From positions 1 through 26,890 of the IMG/VR virus record IMGVR_UViG_3300033141_004014: a DNA stretch of 26,890 bases. One strand, written 5' to 3'. Both the position numbers and the translations under genes were made by a program. The stretch is from a virus. Of this stretch, positions 2,189 through 18,416 are shown one piece after another. Position 1 is the stretch's first letter; each line of letters starts with the position of its first letter. Under the pieces are notes generated by a model. The model saw nothing but the letters and a program-made list of their open reading frames with translations. It was not told where the DNA came from and made no database searches.

Positions 2189-3493
2189 ATGAAGCACATT
2201 TTTGTATTTCTCATTATGGCATTTCTTTGTTTTTCGCTCTATGCAACTGGGCAGTCCGATCCAAATGACGGACCGGAACCGATTGAGTTTTCCGTCCTCT
2301 ATTCGGGCATAGGGACGTATGACAAAGGAACTGCTACCGAATGGACCAATGTCGGTTGGGCATTCGAACAGGTAAAAAAAGATTTCCCGGAAGCTGTTAT
2401 GCGTGGTATGCAGGTCGATCTGTCGGACGGATCGCAACTGACAATGACGACGTTTCTTGCCGCGGGGAAAGCACCGAACGTCTACATGGACACGCTGGTT
2501 CGCAGCTCTACGTATATCACACCGGACTTTGCGTTGCCCCTTGACGAGTACGTGAGAGACCTCGCGAAATATCCGGAGGATACCCTGGCACCATACCGGC
2601 GCAATGGTGATCTATTGGCATTGCCGCAACCGGGAAGTGCTCAAGGCATGGCTATTAATCTGGACATGATGAAAGACATCGGCTACGAAGTTCCCGACAA
2701 CTGGACGATTGCCGATTTTCTGGAAATGGCCGAGCTCGTAAAGCAAAAATACAATGGCGAGAAATGGGCCACGGGCATGTTTGCCGGCAATCAAAGCGGT
2801 GACTACTTGATCAACAACTGGTTCGCTGCCTTCGGGTGCCGGTACTATGATCCAGGAGATTACTCGCACACAGTCATTCGGGATACCGGAGGCGCACAGG
2901 TGCACGCATTTTTCCAGACGCTTATGAAAAACGGGTACATACGCCAGGACGCAGCAACGCAGGTTGACGACGACTACGTTCTCGATTGGGCGCGGGGGAA
3001 TCTCGCAGCTACGGCGTTTTTCCAATCATGGACAAAGCATTATTTCAAGGTATTGATCGACAACGGAGAAATAAAGGAGCCGTTCGAATACAAGTTCGTG
3101 CCGTTCCCCCGTGCGGAAGGTGTCAATCGAGTTCCCACGTACTACATGAACGGCGCAATTGTCGTGCACAAGAGCGGATCAGCGGCCGACCCGATTGCCG
3201 CGCGGTTCGCAGAATACCTGAACGGTGCAAAGATTCAGACCGCGGAGGTTTTGCTCAATTCCGTGCTTCCCACCAGGACCGATGTGACGGCAAAGCCTGG
3301 CGACCCGTGGACCGCGCAGATTGCCGATATTGTCGCAGAGAACGGCATTTTTGATGTCGGGCTTACCAATGAAAAATTCGGCGCTACCAGACCGCAGCAC
3401 TATTCAATCCTTCAAAAAGTGCTCAATCTCAAAAATACCCCCCAGGAAAGTATCGCCGAATATGAAAAAGCGCTAAACGAAGCGCTCAAGTAA
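2189..3493 (+). CDS. ABC transporter extracellular solute-binding protein (family 1, sugar type)
   Basis: A 434-aa protein with AGGAGG upstream of ATG 2189. Residues 1-20 form a signal peptide (charged start, hydrophobic core, cut near LYATGQSD). There is no lipobox cysteine at the junction, so it would be a soluble periplasmic protein or be anchored otherwise. The body has the usual two-lobed family 1 layout: an LTMTTFLAAGKAPNVY segment early, LPLDEYV, ALPQPGSAQGMAINLDMM, then NNWFAAFG and a C-terminal helix set. Such proteins capture sugars, oligosaccharides or glycerol phosphates and deliver them to two permeases, which follow here. Substrate cannot be told from sequence. Its presence in a phage operon is unusual. 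Confidence 0.85.
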   Translation: MKHIFVFLIMAFLCFSLYATGQSDPNDGPEPIEFSVLYSGIGTYDKGTATEWTNVGWAFEQVKKDFPEAVMRGMQVDLSDGSQLTMTTFLAAGKAPNVYMDTLVRSSTYITPDFALPLDEYVRDLAKYPEDTLAPYRRNGDLLALPQPGSAQGMAINLDMMKDIGYEVPDNWTIADFLEMAELVKQKYNGEKWATGMFAGNQSGDYLINNWFAAFGCRYYDPGDYSHTVIRDTGGAQVHAFFQTLMKNGYIRQDAATQVDDDYVLDWARGNLAATAFFQSWTKHYFKVLIDNGEIKEPFEYKFVPFPRAEGVNRVPTYYMNGAIVVHKSGSAADPIAARFAEYLNGAKIQTAEVLLNSVLPTRTDVTAKPGDPWTAQIADIVAENGIFDVGLTNEKFGATRPQHYSILQKVLNLKNTPQESIAEYEKALNEALK

Positions 3494-3525
3494 TCTGTCG
3501 GCGGGACAGTCTTCCCGCCATTCCC

Positions 3526-3584
3526 GCGTCCGCTCGTGCTGCCGCAACATTCGTGGCAACCGGGTTCAATTCCCGGTGGACGCA
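3526..3584 (+). other. tRNA-like fold lacking a D-arm
   Basis: Acceptor arms GCGTCCG (3526-3532) and TGGACGC (3577-3583) pair over 7 bp with one G-U. CCGGG/CCCGG (3560-3564, 3572-3576) enclose the canonical T-loop TTCAATT, and A3584 sits at the discriminator position. A middle hairpin, TGCCGC/GTGGCA, carries a 7-nt loop AACATTC, giving CAT at the anticodon position, but the usual U33 is A. Only 7 nt stand where a D-arm should be and no CCA is encoded. It lies in the leader of the permease gene and overlaps that gene's possible GTG start. A separate perfect 7-bp hairpin (3500-3519) precedes it. It could be a tRNA relic, an old attachment-site scar or an RNA element; a working tRNA is unlikely. 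Confidence 0.45.
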
Positions 3585-3585
3585 G

Positions 3586-4416
3586 ATGAAATATCTCCTG
3601 CTTTTTCCGGCAGTTCTGGCCGTAGCGCTTTTTTTGCTATGGCCAATAGGGGAACTCGTTCGCTATTCGACGCTCAAAACGAATTTCATAACTACCTCGA
3701 GCGTGGGCCTGCTCAACTATCGCAATATGTTTCACAACACGGTATTTTTGCGTTCATGGGGAAACTCGTTTTGCTACATGGCAATCATGGTTGCTGCCAA
3801 TATGGTCGTTTCAACGGGAATTGTGTTGATAGCGTTTACGCTAAAAAAACGGTGGCATGATTTTATCAGGATATCGTTCTACGTGCCGGTCCTGGCGGCG
3901 GGAGTTATTATTGCTCAGGTCTGGCGATGGGTGTTCCATGCGCGTGGGCCGATCAACTGGATTCTGTCATTTTTCGGCGTCGATCCGATTTATTGGTTCG
4001 CGCAAGGAATCACTGCGATCCCGGCGGTCTCTCTTGTGGTCGTTGTTTCCGCATGGGGCGGAACGGTCATAATCCTACTTGCCTATGTGTTGTCTATCGA
4101 CCCGGCGCTATATGATGCGGCAACGATTGACGGCGCCACGTGGGGGCAAATAAAGCGACGGATTGTTCGTCCTCTCATGTGGCCGGCCATAGCCATGGTA
4201 TCCCTTATGGCTATGATTGCAGCCGCGCAAGTCTTCGAAACGATCTATGTGCTGGCTCCATATGAATACTCGGCAAGCGTTACGTTTCACATATACCGTG
4301 AAGCGTTTGTTTTCGGGCGGTTTGGCTATGCAAGCGCGCAAGCAATCATGCTATTGCTGGTGACGGCTGCAATGACAATCGGGAAAAAAAGGATAGAACA
4401 GGCAATAGGAGGATAG
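3586..4416 (+). CDS. ABC sugar-type permease, MalF/UgpA-like
   Basis: A 276-aa inner-membrane protein from ATG 3586 (GGTGGA upstream); a GTG at 3553 in frame would add 11 residues but lacks a ribosome site. It has about six hydrophobic segments, beginning with MKYLLLFPAVLAVALFLLW. The cytoplasmic EAA loop is present as YDAATIDGATWGQIKRRIVRP (four residues from each end vary in the family), the contact for the ATPase. It forms the translocation channel with the second permease and receives substrate from the binding protein upstream. No ATPase gene follows, so it would rely on a host ATPase of the MsmX/UgpC kind. Confidence 0.82.
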   Translation: MKYLLLFPAVLAVALFLLWPIGELVRYSTLKTNFITTSSVGLLNYRNMFHNTVFLRSWGNSFCYMAIMVAANMVVSTGIVLIAFTLKKRWHDFIRISFYVPVLAAGVIIAQVWRWVFHARGPINWILSFFGVDPIYWFAQGITAIPAVSLVVVVSAWGGTVIILLAYVLSIDPALYDAATIDGATWGQIKRRIVRPLMWPAIAMVSLMAMIAAAQVFETIYVLAPYEYSASVTFHIYREAFVFGRFGYASAQAIMLLLVTAAMTIGKKRIEQAIGG

Positions 4417-4420
4417 CTAT

Positions 4421-4642
4421 ATGAAACTTGTAAACATAGAATTATTCGGCAATGCCGAACAAGAAAAAATCTGGGTGAATCCGGAACAGATATGCTACAT
4501 CATCGCTCGCGAGAGAAAAAATTCTTCTAGTTTTACACCGACGTGGGGAATAGAACTTATATTTGGAGACCATACGCTTTTACTCGAAGCGCGGGGCAAA
4601 GAAGAAGTCCAGCGCCTGGTTTCTGACTTATGTCAAAAATAA
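4421..4642 (+). CDS. small FlbD-like protein, function unknown
   Basis: A 73-aa protein with GGAGGA and good spacing before ATG 4421, inserted between the two permease genes and overlapping the second by 13 bp. The pattern WVNPEQICYI... then a hydrophobic strand, HTLLLEARGKEEVQRLVSDL, resembles the short FlbD-like fold (N-P-x-x-I-x-x-I, then a basic loop and V...V..L). FlbD-type proteins occur in flagellar clusters and also as loose small phage genes. The similarity is weak. Interruption of a permease pair by an unrelated small gene is not typical of a bacterial ABC operon. Confidence 0.5.
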   Translation: MKLVNIELFGNAEQEKIWVNPEQICYIIARERKNSSSFTPTWGIELIFGDHTLLLEARGKEEVQRLVSDLCQK

Positions 4643-5442
4643 TTATCTTAATAGCGGCGGTGCTGCTCCTCGTCCCGCCGTATTTCATGGTTATCGGCAG
4701 CTTCCAAGACATACATGGCGTATTTATTATGCCGCCGAGGCCGCTGCCACTACACCCAACGCTTGAGAATTACCGAAAATTGCTATCAACTGACGGCGTG
4801 GTCAGGTGGGCATTCAATAGCGTGTTCGTTGTCGCCTGCGTCGTAGTGTTGTCTGTAATCGTGGCGGCCGGTGCCGGGTATGCGTTTTCGGCATATCGAT
4901 TTCCGCTGAAGCGGGTTCTGTGGATGCTTTTGCTTATGGGCATTATGGTCCCGAGGATTTCAGCAATCGTGCCGCTGTTCGTAGTAATCAATCGCTTGAA
5001 ATTGTCCGGCACCATGATTGCTGCTGTGCTTCCCGTAATCGCATCGCCAATCAATTTCTACCTGGCCCGAACGTATTTCGAAAGCATCCCCAAGCAATAC
5101 ATAGAATCGGCGCGCATCGACGGTGCGAGCGAAACGCAAGTATTAGCAAACATTATCGTTCCGGTCGCCCGGCCGATCATCGCTACGATTGCGCTATTCT
5201 CGGGCATTGCAGCGCTCGGTGATTATATATGGCAAATGCTTATATTGCAGGACGAAAAAAAATATACGCTGATTGTCGGGCTCACAAAAACAATCATGAA
5301 ACGCGGCGGGGCGGATATGGGAAACCTGAATCCTATCGGACAATCCATGGCCGCCGGCTGCATTCTGTTGCTGCCTATCCTGGCGATCTTTTTGGTCGCC
5401 AACAAATATTTCACGCAGACCATTCAGGGGGTAAAAGACTAA
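4630..5442 (+). CDS. ABC sugar-type permease, MalG/UgpE-like
   Basis: A 270-aa membrane protein beginning in the last codons of the small gene before it. It has the standard MalG plan: first helix (IILIAAVLLLVPPYFMVIGS), the FxxxxxP...L.NY segment, a WAFNSVFVV second helix, and an EAA loop, YIESARIDGASETQVLANI, followed by IVPVARP. It is the second half of the channel. Spacing and overlaps put it in one transcript with the binding protein and first permease. Length is normal for the family, so the importer core is intact except for the missing ATPase. Confidence 0.85.
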   Translation: MSKIIILIAAVLLLVPPYFMVIGSFQDIHGVFIMPPRPLPLHPTLENYRKLLSTDGVVRWAFNSVFVVACVVVLSVIVAAGAGYAFSAYRFPLKRVLWMLLLMGIMVPRISAIVPLFVVINRLKLSGTMIAAVLPVIASPINFYLARTYFESIPKQYIESARIDGASETQVLANIIVPVARPIIATIALFSGIAALGDYIWQMLILQDEKKYTLIVGLTKTIMKRGGADMGNLNPIGQSMAAGCILLLPILAIFLVANKYFTQTIQGVKD

Positions 5443-5654: not shown

Positions 5655-5701
5655 AATAGTCATTGCGGCCGTCGCCACAGCGGCAATGGGAGGACAACAA
5701 C

Positions 5702-6472
5702 ATGACAATAGCAATCATTATCGGGCGCGGAGGAAGCAAGCGGTTGCCGAGGAAAAACGTATTGCGGTTCTGCGAGCATCCGCTCATCGCCTGGTCAATC
5801 GTTCAGGCAAAGTGTTCGCATCGTATCGATTGGGTGTACGTAAGCACGGACGACGACGAAATAGCAGCCGTTTCTCGGGAATATGGAGCCGAGGTTATCC
5901 GGCGGCCCGAATGGCACGACGCCGATCTTGTTTCGGCCAATCGCCCATATCGGCATGCGATGAAGGAACTCCTCATGGAATACGGCGAAGAGTTTAACAC
6001 GGCGGTAACTATCCTTCCCACGTCACCGCTGAAGCGGCCGCAAGACATGGATCTTGGTATAAAACTGGCTCATGATTACGGGTTGCAGGAAGTGATTCCT
6101 ATCAGCAAGCGGCGGGAAACCATGATCTATCGGGTCACGCATCCGTTTACTGCGCGCACGGTATTTTTGGACAAGGGATACCATTTTGCCGGCCCCGGCG
6201 CATCATGGAACGTGTGCAACCCGAGAGGCTATATTGCGTTCACCGAAGCGTTCAGCGATTTAGACCATACGCTCGATGATCGAGCCATGCACCATCTGGA
6301 GGAAAGCCCGAGGCTGGATGTCTCGTACATAGAAGTCCCGTTGTGGCAACAATTCGAAGTGGACACGCAAGAGGAATGGGCTTTGGCGGAAGTGCTCATG
6401 GAGCACTACATATTAAAGGGCAAAGGCCCGGAGGTTTATTATGAGTACGCAGGAAGAAAAAATCACGAGTGA
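5702..6472 (+). CDS. acylneuraminate (nonulosonate) cytidylyltransferase-like
   Basis: A 256-aa protein with GGGAGGA seven bases before ATG 5702. It opens with the nucleotide-binding loop IIGRGGSKRLPRKNV, close to the family's ARGGSKRLPGKN, then YVSTDDDEIAAVSREYGAEVI and ILPTSPLKRPQDMD. The C-terminal DTQEEWALAEVLM matches the family pattern D(T/S)xE(E/D)..LAE. The family activates sialic, legionaminic or pseudaminic acid as the CMP-sugar in the cytoplasm. The loop starts IIG instead of the usual IIPA. Overlap with the Maf-like gene suggests that gene uses the CMP-sugar made here. Which sugar is used cannot be told. Confidence 0.78.
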   Translation: MTIAIIIGRGGSKRLPRKNVLRFCEHPLIAWSIVQAKCSHRIDWVYVSTDDDEIAAVSREYGAEVIRRPEWHDADLVSANRPYRHAMKELLMEYGEEFNTAVTILPTSPLKRPQDMDLGIKLAHDYGLQEVIPISKRRETMIYRVTHPFTARTVFLDKGYHFAGPGASWNVCNPRGYIAFTEAFSDLDHTLDDRAMHHLEESPRLDVSYIEVPLWQQFEVDTQEEWALAEVLMEHYILKGKGPEVYYEYAGRKNHE

Positions 6473-7826
6473 CATGAAAAATGAAATCCCCATTGAATCG
6501 GCATACCGAAGCAATTCGAGTCAATTCAATTTTGGGACCATGATGAAACAGCAAATACATGAGGAGTACAATAGCGCGTATAACCATCAGCATATTCTTG
6601 CAATGATTAACGCCGGGCGTGCATATGATATCAGCCAAGAGCCAAGGCAACACGGCCCGGTGTTCGTTATCGGGTCCGGTCCGAGCCTGGACTTAAGCAT
6701 CAAGCATCTGAAAAAATGGGACGGCGGAATCGTGTGCAGCACGAGTCAAGCGCTTACGCTCATGTATCACGGGATAGAACCCGATTACATTGTTGCGCTC
6801 GATCCGTTCAGCCAATGGGACGAACTGGCCGGCGTAGATTGGTCAAAAACGAAGGCGAAATTGGTCGCTCATCCGGGAGTATGGCCCGATCTATACGAAA
6901 ATTGGCCGAATAAGGTGTTGCTGTATCGGCAAAACATCGGGAGGCCGGATAGCTTTTACGCGACCACGCAAAAGCATATGTATTCGGTGCGCGGCGGCAC
7001 GCGGGACATGACGGAATTCAAATTGCTTATTCTGACCGAGCTCACGTTGCTTGCATGCTCGCCGCCCCTCCAGGTGTTTGTCGCGGATAAGGTCGGGTAT
7101 GGGACGGTGTTTCTCGCAGGCTGCGACTTCGGATTCCCACACAACAAGAGCCGATTTACTATGTATACAGTAAAACGACCGGCAAAGGCCGCTTCTCCGG
7201 GGAATGCGCCAACGATCGACGTGCCTATCGAATGGGAAGAGCACGAATCGCTCCTAGACATAGAATCGCTTCGGGCTGCGGCCGAAAAAGAGCAAAACGA
7301 GGTCATAAAAAGCGACAACGGGGTGTATACGCAAAAAATCCACCTGTTTTACAAAAAAAACTTCATTACCGGCTGGCGCCTGTCCCTGAAAACCATGTAT
7401 ACGACCGACAAGGGAACGATTACCGAGATTCCGTACACGAGCATCGAGAAGGTGATAAAAAATAAGGGCAAAGCAAAGCGGCAGACGCCCGAATACATCA
7501 AGCGGGTCACGGAGCAGTACCTGGCGCGGTCGGGTGCGTTTGTTATCGAAAGCGAGGACGGCGCTATGAGCTTTGTGGAAACGCAGAACCCTATCGTCGA
7601 TCTGTATTCATACATGATGAACATGCGCAAGCAGCTTTATTGTCCTAAGTGTGGGATACATGCGCATGCAGACGACGGGAAGGACCATTCCGGGGAACCG
7701 TGCGCCAGGTGTGGCGGCAAGCTTGAGCTCAAAAACAAAATAGGTATTGCCAAAAATATGGAACGGATTCAAGAGCTTATGAAATACGTAGAAAAGTATG
7801 AAGCGCAAAAAAAAGCGGCCGACTAA
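6441..7826 (+). CDS. DUF115 / Maf-type glycosyltransferase-like protein with C-terminal zinc ribbon
   Basis: A 461-aa protein with GGAGG before ATG 6441, overlapping the cytidylyltransferase by 32 bp. Residues ~74-121 (FVIGSGPSLDLSI through GIEPDYIVALDP) are the signature of the DUF115/6-hydroxymethylpterin pyrophosphokinase MptE-like family, shared with the Maf proteins that put nonulosonic acids on flagellin. A second block, GTVFLAGCDFGFP, is also typical. The C-terminus adds a zinc ribbon (C401, C404, C421, C424) and a basic coiled tail, not part of Maf proteins I know. Together with the upstream enzyme it suggests phage-directed glycosylation of a host surface or flagellar protein. Confidence 0.75.
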   Translation: MSTQEEKITSDMKNEIPIESAYRSNSSQFNFGTMMKQQIHEEYNSAYNHQHILAMINAGRAYDISQEPRQHGPVFVIGSGPSLDLSIKHLKKWDGGIVCSTSQALTLMYHGIEPDYIVALDPFSQWDELAGVDWSKTKAKLVAHPGVWPDLYENWPNKVLLYRQNIGRPDSFYATTQKHMYSVRGGTRDMTEFKLLILTELTLLACSPPLQVFVADKVGYGTVFLAGCDFGFPHNKSRFTMYTVKRPAKAASPGNAPTIDVPIEWEEHESLLDIESLRAAAEKEQNEVIKSDNGVYTQKIHLFYKKNFITGWRLSLKTMYTTDKGTITEIPYTSIEKVIKNKGKAKRQTPEYIKRVTEQYLARSGAFVIESEDGAMSFVETQNPIVDLYSYMMNMRKQLYCPKCGIHAHADDGKDHSGEPCARCGGKLELKNKIGIAKNMERIQELMKYVEKYEAQKKAAD

Positions 7827-11548: not shown

Positions 11549-12173
11549 GGATTATGGATCGCTGTCGCCTGTAGTATGGAACAAGCGGACCGGGAATATA
11601 GTTGCGGGACACCAGCGCCTTGAACAAATGGATTCGATATTAAAATCTACCGCATATGAGCTTACCGTTGCCGTTGTCGATTTAGAGCCGGAAACGGAAG
11701 TGAAAGCCAATGTCACGCTTAACAATCCGTCGGTTATGGGCGAGTGGGACGAAGAAAAATTGGCTGAAATAAAGACGGAGTGGCCTGACATAAATTTTGA
11801 AAAGGATCTCGGGTTCGACAAATATGACATAGACCTGATTTTTGCAGATACTCAATTATCAGAGGACGTGTTTACCGCGTTCGAGCAACAGCAAGACGTG
11901 AAAAACGAGGTTGATAGAATTCGGGAAATTGACAAGTTGAAAGAGGCAAAGCGCGAACACCGCGCGGCCGTAAGCACCGAAAACGCAGAAGGCACCACTC
12001 ACGAAATCGCAAAAGATGATTACATGGTGACATTTGTTTTTCCCAACAATTCCGAGAAACATGATTTTATGCGGTTGATAAAAGAAAAGCCTGCAGAGCG
12101 TTACGTGAAACATACAAAACTCTATGATATTCAAGACGGGAAACTAAAAGCATATGGCAGCGCCGAAGAATAA
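11508..12173 (+). pseudogene. ParB/Srx-like nuclease gene lacking its N-terminus
   Basis: The open frame from 11508 encodes AAEKKLRKSLRDYGSLSPVV, then NKRTGNIVAGHQRLEQM, the core ParB-like motif (S....G...P..V......N.(I/V).GHQRL) found in phage ParB/methyltransferase proteins. Upstream of it the frame is closed (TAA 11505) and has no start codon; the first ATG (11628) lies after the GHQR motif. The beginning overlaps the last 41 bp of the PAPS reductase frame. The C-terminal part is a helical, charged region of ~130 aa. I infer a deletion or small indels that destroyed the junction; translation from 11628 would give a 181-aa protein without the catalytic loop. Confidence 0.55.
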
Positions 12174-16272: not shown

Positions 16273-16275
16273 CGG

Positions 16276-16304
16276 TTGCCTATGGCATGCTATAGCGGTA
16301 TATT
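16276..16304 (+). promoter_or_regulatory. candidate sigma-70 promoter of the Tas-TIGR locus
   Basis: TTGCCT (16276-16281), exactly 17 bp, then TATATT (16299-16304) lie just after the MuF stop. A start near 16311 would give a ~14-nt leader containing the GGAGG of the Tas gene. The spacer overlaps a near-palindrome, CTATGGCATGCTATAG (16280-16295), of the GGCATG type also seen in the 8.9-9.3 kb control region; it could be an operator. Confidence 0.5.
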
Positions 16305-16325
16305 GGATGGCATGGAGGCGAATAG

Positions 16326-17234
16326 ATGGGTAAAGAGGCATTAAAGATACCGTTCCTTGACCCGGAAGACGATCCGGCAATGTTTGACACCAGCCGGCAC
16401 ATTCCAAAAGCCGAAAACGGCGAGTATGCGAAGTGGAATTATATCGTCGTCGATCCCGTTGAACACATGGTTTGGCATAATATCCGCCGGGAGCGACCGG
16501 AAAAACTTGACGATCTGAAGTCTGCGATTGACGAGCGCGAGCAATTGTTAAAGCTGAGAATAAAGATTTCCAATCAGTTGCTGGCGTTCGCCCGGAGAAC
16601 CGATAGCGAATACAGCAAAGAAGTCCTGGAAAAAATGTTCGAAGAGGCCACCGCGCTTGAAGCGGCTTCCCGGAAAAAGCTCGAAAAATTTGCGATTGAA
16701 TACCGGGAATATGACACGCTCATGAATGCGTGCATGAGCATCCGGGGAGTCGGTCCATTGACGGCGGCATATTTGATCGTTTATGTGGATTTGACGAAAG
16801 CGCCGAATTGTTCGAGCGTATGGAAATATGTCGGGTATCACGCGGCATCATGGCAGAGATACCAGAAGACCGTAGCGGGAGGCGGCAACAAGAAATTGCG
16901 CACGGCGCTATATCGGACGGCCTGCGCCATGATAAAACTCGGTAGTCCCTATGCGGAGGTCTATTACGCCAGGAAAGACAAAACCAGCCAAAGCGAACTG
17001 ATGACCAGTTCGTACAATACGCAAGGAGTTCGCGTACAATGCGCATGGAAAGACACAAAACCGTCGCATCGCCATGGGGATGCAATGCGCGTCATGATGA
17101 AGCATTTTCTTCGTGATTACTGGAAGGTGGGGAGGACCATTATGGGACTTCCGATCAATGATCCATACGCAGCGGAGCACCTTGGACACGAGCACATAAT
17201 CCCGCCGCAAGCGCGCGGCTGGCCTATGGAATAG
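16326..17234 (+). CDS. tas: TIGR-associated protein (Tas), Nop/IS110-C-terminal-type RNA-guided DNA-binding protein without nuclease domain
   Basis: A 302-aa protein with ATGGAGGCG before ATG 16326. Residues ~55-130 are a long charged helical (coiled-coil) stretch. Residues 138-217 carry the block known from IS110/IS116 transposase C-termini: SIRGVGPLTAAYLIV (138-152), SVWKYVGYH (164-172) and a GGGNKKLRTALYRTA... run reaching SPYAEVYYARK (185-216). In Tas proteins this corresponds to the Nop-like guide-RNA-binding domain. The N-terminal 50 residues are too short for the IS110 DEDD/RuvC domain, and no HNH motif is seen, so it best fits a nuclease-less TasA-like member. The ~85-residue C-terminus is basic and not recognised. 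No terminal inverted repeats flank it. A 36-bp dual-guide array follows 17 bp downstream, which is the key support. Confidence 0.88.
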   Translation: MGKEALKIPFLDPEDDPAMFDTSRHIPKAENGEYAKWNYIVVDPVEHMVWHNIRRERPEKLDDLKSAIDEREQLLKLRIKISNQLLAFARRTDSEYSKEVLEKMFEEATALEAASRKKLEKFAIEYREYDTLMNACMSIRGVGPLTAAYLIVYVDLTKAPNCSSVWKYVGYHAASWQRYQKTVAGGGNKKLRTALYRTACAMIKLGSPYAEVYYARKDKTSQSELMTSSYNTQGVRVQCAWKDTKPSHRHGDAMRVMMKHFLRDYWKVGRTIMGLPINDPYAAEHLGHEHIIPPQARGWPME

Positions 17235-17251
17235 AGTTTTCCAAAATGATC

Positions 17252-17655
17252 AAGCGAGCCAAAGGTAGGAAGACACCCACTTCGCGGAAGCGAGCCAAAG
17301 GTAGGAAGACACCCACTTCGCGGAAGCGAGCCATTATTGCGAAGACATCCAACGCCGAGAAGCGAGCCATACTGCATAAGACACCCAGAGTGGTGAAGCG
17401 AGCCACGGTGCGCAAGACACCCACTGTATCAAAGCGAGCCACGACGAATAAGACACCCAAAACAGCGAAGCGAGCCATTATTGCGAAGACACCCAAGGCC
17501 GAAAAGCGAGCCACGAAACGGAAGACACCCACTCTGCTTAAGCGAGCCAGACGAAACAAGACACCCACTCTGCTTAAGCGAGCCAGACGAAACAAGGCAC
17601 CCACTTGGCCGAAGCGAGCCAGCAAATCAAAGACACCCAGAGCGCTTAAGCGAGC
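17252..17655 (+). repeat. TIGR array: 11 units of 36 bp, alternating repeats and 8-nt variable guides
   Basis: Every 18 bp from 17252 a constant 10-bp word starts: AAGCGAGCCA (type A: 17252, 17288 ... 17612) alternates without exception with AAGACACCCA (type B: 17270, 17306 ... 17630). Each is followed by 8 variable bases. There are 11 complete A+B units (396 bp), then a twelfth partial A word (17648-17655) that runs into the terminator. Only two constant-word variants occur: AAGACATCCA in unit 3 and AAGGCACCCA in unit 10. Guide pairs in order are aaggtagg/cttcgcgg (units 1 and 2), ttattgcg/acgccgag, tactgcat/gagtggtg, cggtgcgc/ctgtatca, cgacgaat/aaacagcg, ttattgcg/aggccgaa, cgaaacgg/ctctgctt, gacgaaac/ctctgctt, gacgaaac/cttggccg, gcaaatca/gagcgctt. 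In described TIGR systems the transcript is cut to 36-nt tigRNAs with two spacers that direct Tas to DNA; period and design match. Confidence 0.9.
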
Positions 17656-17677
17656 ACCCTTCGGGGTGCTTTTTTTT
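17653..17677 (+). terminator. terminator fused to the end of the TIGR array
   Basis: AGCACCC, the tetraloop TTCG, GGGTGCT, then a T8 tract (17670-17677). The left arm begins inside the last partial type A repeat word, so the array transcript ends exactly at its last repeat. This fixes the array's transcription direction as rightward. Confidence 0.9.
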
Positions 17678-17783
17678 GCCCCTTGCTTTTTTCTTTCAAA
17701 TAATCATACAGTGTGGTACACTATATCATACACCGTGCGGAACATAGCCAAAATCCGTTACGTGCGGGGTTGCGAGGTACTAC
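17678..17783 (+). promoter_or_regulatory. spacer before the scaffold gene, possible promoter
   Basis: After the array terminator the head genes need read-through or a new promoter. TTTCAA, 17 bp, then TACACT (17695 to ~17723) is a weak candidate, overlapping the inverted repeat AGTGT-GGT-ACACT. No gene is seen. GAGGT lies seven bases before the scaffold ATG. Confidence 0.3.
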
Positions 17784-18416
17784 ATGGACGAAAATGAATT
17801 GATCGGGATGGTTCCCGAGGACAATCGCGAAGCGGTACAGCAATTTATCCAATCGTTGAACCCGCTCTCGAAGTTGGACGAAAAATCGGTCGGACGGTTT
17901 ATCGAGCAAAACGATGTGCTCAAAAGCTATCGGGATCGATTTTTCAAGGACAGCCTCGAGAATTGGCAAAAAAACAACCTGGACAAAATCTACCAGGAGC
18001 GATACGCGAAGGAACACCCGGAAGAGACCGAAGAGCAGAAACGAATCAAAGAGCTCGAAATAAAATTTGCGGAGAAGGACCGACAGCAGCAGCAGGCGGA
18101 ATTGCGACTGACCGCCCTAAACATTATCACCGAGATGGAATTACCGAAAGATGCGGCCAATTACATTTCGGGGAATGATGAGAAGGAGCTACGCAAAAGT
18201 GCCGAAGGACTCAAGGCGATATTGGACGCACACGAAGGAAAGGTGCGTGAGGGTATTATTCGTGAACATGGCCGGACGCCGGAGAAAGCAACAGACCATG
18301 GGGACAAATACTACACGATTGACCAGATCAACGAAATGTCGGCCGCCGAGTATTCCCAGAATTCAGACAAGGTCCTTGCTTCGATAAAATATCATCAATC
18401 CCTACAATCGAGGTAA
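17784..18416 (+). CDS. capsid scaffolding protein (DUF4355-like)
   Basis: A 210-aa, highly charged and helical protein directly before the major capsid gene, the usual place of the scaffold. The middle (~75-115) is a Glu/Lys/Gln coiled coil, and the C-terminal part has a Tyr-rich DQINEMSAAEYSQN segment. Scaffolds direct coat protein assembly and leave the prohead. Assignment rests on composition, size and position. Confidence 0.8.
   Translation: MDENELIGMVPEDNREAVQQFIQSLNPLSKLDEKSVGRFIEQNDVLKSYRDRFFKDSLENWQKNNLDKIYQERYAKEHPEETEEQKRIKELEIKFAEKDRQQQQAELRLTALNIITEMELPKDAANYISGNDEKELRKSAEGLKAILDAHEGKVREGIIREHGRTPEKATDHGDKYYTIDQINEMSAAEYSQNSDKVLASIKYHQSLQSR

What the first reader, a model, noticed from the sequence alone, without database searches (positions are those of the whole stretch)
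16276..17677. A TIGR-Tas system: RNA-guided DNA-binding protein plus dual-guide array in a phage head operon
Seen: a 302-aa protein with an IS110-C-terminal/Nop-type block, then 17 bp later 11 units of exactly 36 bp. Two different 10-bp words alternate strictly every 18 bp, each followed by 8 variable bases, and the array ends in a strong terminator. Known: TIGR-Tas systems of phages pair a Nop-domain Tas protein with an array processed to 36-nt tigRNAs carrying two spacers. Inference: this locus is a member, with its own repeat words and guide set; its natural target is unknown.
Basis: partly seen in the sequence, partly recalled or inferred. Interest (0 to 1): 0.97.

Follow-up and report, generated by a model that had tools for sequence, protein, structure and literature searches.

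The report
Phage RNA-guided TIGR-Tas locus, TasH-like
A bacterial virus carries a gene for an RNA-guided DNA-binding protein next to a string of 11 paired guide sequences; it is a clear new member of the recently described TIGR-Tas family, related to the DNA-cutting type (TasH) but apparently missing one residue of the cutting site.

Summary
ORF 16326-17234 (302 aa) passes NCBI's curated TIGR-Tas cut-off (115.2 bits against 100). Its closest solved structure is TasH of Salicola phage CGphi29 (E=3.8e-70; fold Z 29.9 over 299 residues, HNH region included). The array (17252-17654) has 11 units of exactly 36 bp: edge AAGCGAGCCA, 8-nt spacer, loop AAGACACCCA, 8-nt spacer. It ends in a truncated edge repeat and a terminator. 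The SpTasH locus has the same edge, a loop one letter different and the same spacer length, so this is a TasH-clade system, not a nuclease-free TasA. All 26 viral loci found by protein similarity alone carry such arrays. An edge-repeat base pair covaries (C-G/U-A), spacers turn over between near-identical loci, and a related phage shows the empty site. New detail: HNH column 23, probably a metal ligand, is D or H in nearly all relatives but Ser here, on a branch about ten times longer than its sister's. That suggests a naturally nuclease-impaired TasH that binds rather than cuts (inference). No targets were found. Guide processing and DNA binding are untested here.

The parts
16326..17234 (+). 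tas gene, 302 aa, TasH-clade TIGR-associated protein
   Evidence: NCBIfam NF052498 115.2 bits; PDB TasH E=3.8e-70; fold Z 29.9
16326..16496 (+). N-terminal HNH-fold region (residues 1-57); codon 23 (16392-16394) is Ser where relatives have Asp or His; D21, R24, N38, H47, H51 kept
   Evidence: alignments of the clade, HNH profile against PDB
16731..16967 (+). IS110 C-terminal / Nop-type RNA-binding block (residues 136-214)
   Evidence: Pfam PF02371, E=1.5e-05, above gathering score
17252..17647 (+). TIGR array, 11 units of 36 bp: edge AAGCGAGCCA, spacer A (8), loop AAGACACCCA, spacer B (8)
   Evidence: covarying edge pair
17648..17654 (+). 3'-truncated edge repeat AAGCGAG closing the last unit
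   Evidence: sequence; the same closing element in the SpTasH locus
17652..17677 (+). terminator-like hairpin with T-run
   Evidence: 6 such sites found in the stretch against 3.0 expected; this one has 8 pairs and a run of 8 T
16276..16304 (+). weak promoter-like site upstream of tas (TTGCCT-17-TATATT)
   Evidence: 2 found in the stretch against 1.2 expected, so not significant
16273..17783 (+). stretch between minor head and scaffold genes that holds tas and the array; 85 bp at the same place in relative L122, without tas

Best explanation
A phage-borne TIGR-Tas system of the TasH clade, carried as cargo in the head operon. The array is transcribed to the terminator and, by analogy with SpTasH, cut within each edge repeat into 11 tigRNAs of 36 nt. 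A Tas dimer would hold one tigRNA through the near-identical edge and loop repeats. Spacers A and B would pair with opposite strands of one DNA site, 5'-A-(0 to 2 nt)-revcomp(B)-3'. Because one HNH metal-ligand position is Ser, the complex most likely binds and bends DNA, blocking transcription or replication, with little or no cutting. Shown here: homology, fold, array anatomy, co-occurrence, spacer turnover, empty site. Inferred: guide processing, DNA binding, loss of cutting, biological role.
For: Curated TIGR-Tas model passed. TasH and TasR are the best PDB sequence matches and best fold matches. The characterised SpTasH locus has an identical edge repeat, a loop one letter different and 8-nt spacers. 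Arrays sit beside tas in 26 of 26 viral loci found by protein alone. Edge positions 4-7 covary C-G 220 / U-A 76 against 25 U-G or C-A. Spacers are replaced while flanks stay. Empty site in L122. Ser at HNH column 23 and a long branch.
Against: No small-RNA data. No target found. H47, H51 and N38 of the HNH motif are kept and His25 lies near, so cutting may survive. The array has no clear 5'-truncated edge. Spacer duplication reduces guide diversity.
Confidence: 0.9

Rival explanations
1. The same TIGR-Tas system, but the nuclease is active: His25 or another residue replaces the missing ligand and the complex cuts its target like SpTasH.
For: HNH fold aligned along its length with TasH; N38, H47 and H51 conserved; His25 next to the motif (sequence).
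Against: Column 23 is D or H in nearly all relatives, including sister L020; long branch.
Confidence: 0.38
2. The array encodes a lysine-rich repeat protein (KRAxxxKTPxxx), since 36 is a multiple of 3 and frame 17246-17797 is open.
For: Open frame of 183 aa.
Against: Frames stay open by chance in 14% of shuffles of the spacers; related arrays hold 160-222 stops in each of the three frames; the frame reads through the terminator and past the next gene's start; spacers of 7 or 9 nt in relatives break frame.
Confidence: 0.01
3. The protein is an IS110-family transposase or a remnant of one, and the repeats are unrelated.
For: Pfam and PHROG names say transposase; fold Z 15.6 to IS621.
Against: IS110 equivalog 28.5 bits against a cut-off of 140; N-terminus HNH-like; tas and arrays always occur together in this clade.
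Confidence: 0.01

Closest known systems
SpTIGR-TasH of Salicola phage CGphi29 (NC_020844, SLPG_00018; PDB 9w04, 9vzx, 21kl)
   Same: 44% identical protein, full-length fold match, identical edge repeat AAGCGAGCCA, 8-nt spacers, 36-nt unit, array downstream closed by truncated edge and terminator, structural-gene neighbourhood
   Different: Loop AAGACACCCA instead of AAGACAACCA; Asp30 of TasH is Ser23 here; the short 'HCEITG' stretch before the HNH motif is absent; different guides and different phage
TasA (nuclease-free Tas proteins, e.g. FpTIGR)
   Same: If the HNH is dead it would work like TasA: guided binding without cutting
   Different: Keeps an HNH fold and lies inside the TasH clade (100/97 support)
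TaTasR (PDB 9mty)
   Same: Nop fold (Z 19.4) and dual-repeat array
   Different: TasR has a RuvC domain, 9-nt spacers and UG...CCA repeats (paper); only 27% identity over the aligned part
IS110 / IS621 bridge-RNA recombinases
   Same: C-terminal RNA-binding fold (Z 15.6)
   Different: No DEDD domain, no bridge RNA, array instead

Membership tests
TIGR-Tas | Tas protein of the family with Nop/IS110-type RNA-binding domain | tested here: met
   NF052498 115.2 bits against 100; PDB E=3.8e-70; fold Z 29.9
TIGR-Tas | two distinct alternating repeats of 8-12 nt with short spacers, next to tas, mostly 5-15 units | tested here: met
   10-nt repeats, 8-nt spacers (as in SpTIGR), 11 units, 17 bp downstream
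TIGR-Tas | array ends in 3'-truncated edge repeat and terminator | tested here: met
   AAGCGAG then hairpin and T-run
TIGR-Tas | array begins with 5'-truncated edge repeat | tested here: inconclusive
   First edge is complete; a TTTTCCA plus 8 nt precedes it at a loop position; the paper calls this feature typical, not universal
TIGR-Tas | edge and loop share box C/D-like ends; edge has an extra, covarying pair | tested here: met
   AAG...CCA in both; edge 4-7 C-G 220, U-A 76, mixed 25
TIGR-Tas | processing into 36-nt tigRNAs bound by Tas | not testable with these tools
   needs small-RNA sequencing
TIGR-Tas | tandem-spacer DNA targeting of both strands | not testable with these tools
   no natural target found
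TasH (HNH nuclease subtype) | N-terminal HNH fold and descent within the TasH group | tested here: met
   fold aligned over residues 1-301; tree
TasH (HNH nuclease subtype) | intact HNH residues incl. Asp/His at column 23 | tested here: not met
   Ser23; D or H in nearly all relatives. So: TasH clade by descent, not filed as an active TasH nuclease
IS110 transposase | full IS110 equivalog | tested here: not met
   28.5 bits against cut-off 140

The most novel reading that the evidence does not exclude
A naturally nuclease-dead TasH: a phage keeps a TIGR array and an HNH-fold Tas but has lost cutting, and uses it as an RNA-guided DNA roadblock or repressor. L036/L008, with Asn at column 23 and both downstream histidines replaced, would be an independent second case.
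Probability: 0.55. Interest if true: 0.65.

Novelty: new member of a known kind. Interest (0 to 1): 0.5.

Why it matters
The natural role, targets and spacer origin of TIGR systems are open (PMC12045711). This locus brings a phage clade in which spacers turn over while repeats and flanks stay, an empty-site relative, and possible natural losses of TasH cutting. If confirmed, such losses would argue that guided binding alone is useful to phages.

Tried and rejected
Coding reading of the array: rejected. Homing into the DNA polymerase gene in relative G025: the polymerase looked split, but all 36 relatives found without tas also have it as two segments, most of them adjacent and some with other inserts between, so the cassette is cargo at a junction. 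Targets: no excess over shuffled spacer pairings in 1.24 Mb of TIGR-phage DNA (2/45/703 hits at 0/1/2 mismatches against 0-3/23-37/627-693), none better than chance in the window's own phage or L122, none in polymerase relatives. Three window guides scanned over IMG/VR gave 22, 70 and 56 stretches; no shuffled control could be run for these scans, none of the hits lies in metagenome 3300033148 (that of the near-identical contig), and gene sharing with the window was weak. Homologues in bacterial genomes: none in the one pattern-based scan, which misses distant relatives. Host: not identified; the ABC-transporter query gave nothing. Supplementary tables of the TIGR paper could not be read, so whether this contig is listed there is unknown. 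Rfam and tRNA scans of the window: nothing. PADLOC (2023, older than TIGR): nothing for the window protein. In the fold search other families below rank 9 are common helical arrangements and were not interpreted.

Full report
The observation. The window is a phage fragment (an IMG/VR record), 99.996% identical to part of a 38.6-kb IMG/VR contig. ORF 16326-17234 encodes 302 aa, and 17 bp after its stop lies an array of 11 units of exactly 36 bp. Each unit is AAGCGAGCCA, 8 nt, AAGACACCCA, 8 nt. The compound pattern occurs 11 times and never in 100 shuffles. The array closes with AAGCGAG and a hairpin with T-run. Units 1 and 2 are identical, and units 3/7 and 8/9/10 share spacers, so the array seems to grow partly by duplication and recombination of units (sequence; inference).

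What it is. The protein passes the NCBIfam TIGR_Tas_endo cut-off, 115.2 against 100 bits. In the PDB its best sequence matches are TasH (E=3.8e-70) and then TasR (6e-15). An AlphaFold2 model (mean pLDDT 89.5) aligns to the TasH-tigRNA-dsDNA complex 9w04 with Z 29.9 over 299 residues, to TasR with Z 19.4 and to IS621 with Z 15.6. The matched TasH is that of Salicola phage CGphi29, one of three systems studied in the TIGR-Tas paper (PMC12045711). Its locus has the identical edge repeat, loop AAGACAACCA, mostly 8-nt spacers and the same closing element. The published anatomy (alternating 8-12-nt repeats, most often 5-15 units, truncated edge then terminator) fits.

The clade. A search from seven members found 26 viral loci by protein alone; all 26 records also carry a dual-repeat array of period 36, as do the three further Tas-bearing records reached in other ways. 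One record, G027, found through its array, has a mini-array but no Tas detected in its 42.6 kb. Neighbouring genes differ: terminase and portal, DNA polymerase, helicase, exonuclease, ParB-like protein. So the cassette behaves as cargo rather than a fixed part of one operon. For the window, relative L122 (portal 60% identical) has minor head and scaffold genes 85 bp apart with no tas, where the window has 1511 bp.

RNA evidence. Edge positions 4 and 7 are C-G in 220 units and U-A in 76, against 14 U-G and 11 C-A; loop positions 4 and 7 mostly do not pair. The detection pattern allowed all four combinations. The paper describes an extra covarying pair in TasR edge repeats. This identifies AAGCGAGCCA as the edge. 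Shared descent inflates these counts; U-A loci fall in more than one place of the tree, whose deep forks are open. Spacers turn over while flanks stay: G025 and G026, with Tas genes 90% identical over the 234 bp available, share no unit; G007 and G008 at 92% share 7 of 16.

The HNH domain. The clade's N-terminal profile resembles colicin-type and maturase HNH nucleases. In the printed alignments column 23 falls on the first His of the motif, a metal ligand in colicin E7 (established knowledge). That column is D or H in nearly all relatives, including the active SpTasH, N in L036, and S in the window. D21, R24, N38, H47 and H51 remain. On a tree of the Nop part alone the window sits beside L020 (97/95), inside a nine-member group with SpTasH (100/97), and its branch is 1.42 against 0.15 for L020. 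This suggests changed constraint after loss of cutting. It is inference: His25 might compensate.

Targets. With the pairing geometry that I derived from the paper's 8-nt 3' overhangs and its gap tolerance, no excess of targets was seen, and IMG/VR scans gave hits that cannot be told from chance. The natural target stays unknown.

Conclusion. TIGR-Tas membership is about as sure as sequence and fold can make it. The most likely action is RNA-guided DNA binding by a Tas dimer with 11 guides, with reduced or no cutting. Guide processing, binding, cutting and biological role need experiments.

Noticed in passing
L009 / G027 (IMGVR_UViG_3300006792_000002), about 39,300 of the contig, - strand: A TIGR-like mini-array of about three units with terminator, but no Tas detected in the 42.6-kb contig: an orphan array, a lost tas, or an incomplete contig.
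   Followed up: partly
L036 / L008 (IMGVR_UViG_3300032163_000079), tas gene: Second TasH-clade protein with a degraded HNH motif: Asn at column 23 and Arg/Gln in place of the two downstream histidines, yet with an intact array.
   Followed up: partly
G025 (IMGVR_UViG_3300033150_000902) 40017-47793: TasH cassette sits between the two genes of a split DNA polymerase; relatives hold various other inserts at the same junction, which looks like a cargo hotspot.
   Followed up: yes
G025 against G026; G007 against G008: Spacer sets wholly or half replaced between arrays with near-identical tas genes: useful for studying how TIGR arrays gain spacers.
   Followed up: partly
window 2189-5442: Solute-binding protein and two ABC-transporter permeases of sugar type inside a phage contig.
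   Followed up: no
window 5663-7826: Cytidylyltransferase and MptE-like (DUF115) genes, as in surface-glycan pathways, in the same phage.
   Followed up: no
window 11628-12173; L031:2063-2956: ParB-like similarity about 4 kb upstream of tas in the window, and a ParB-like gene directly upstream of tas in L031; the TIGR paper reports tasA-parB operons.
   Followed up: no
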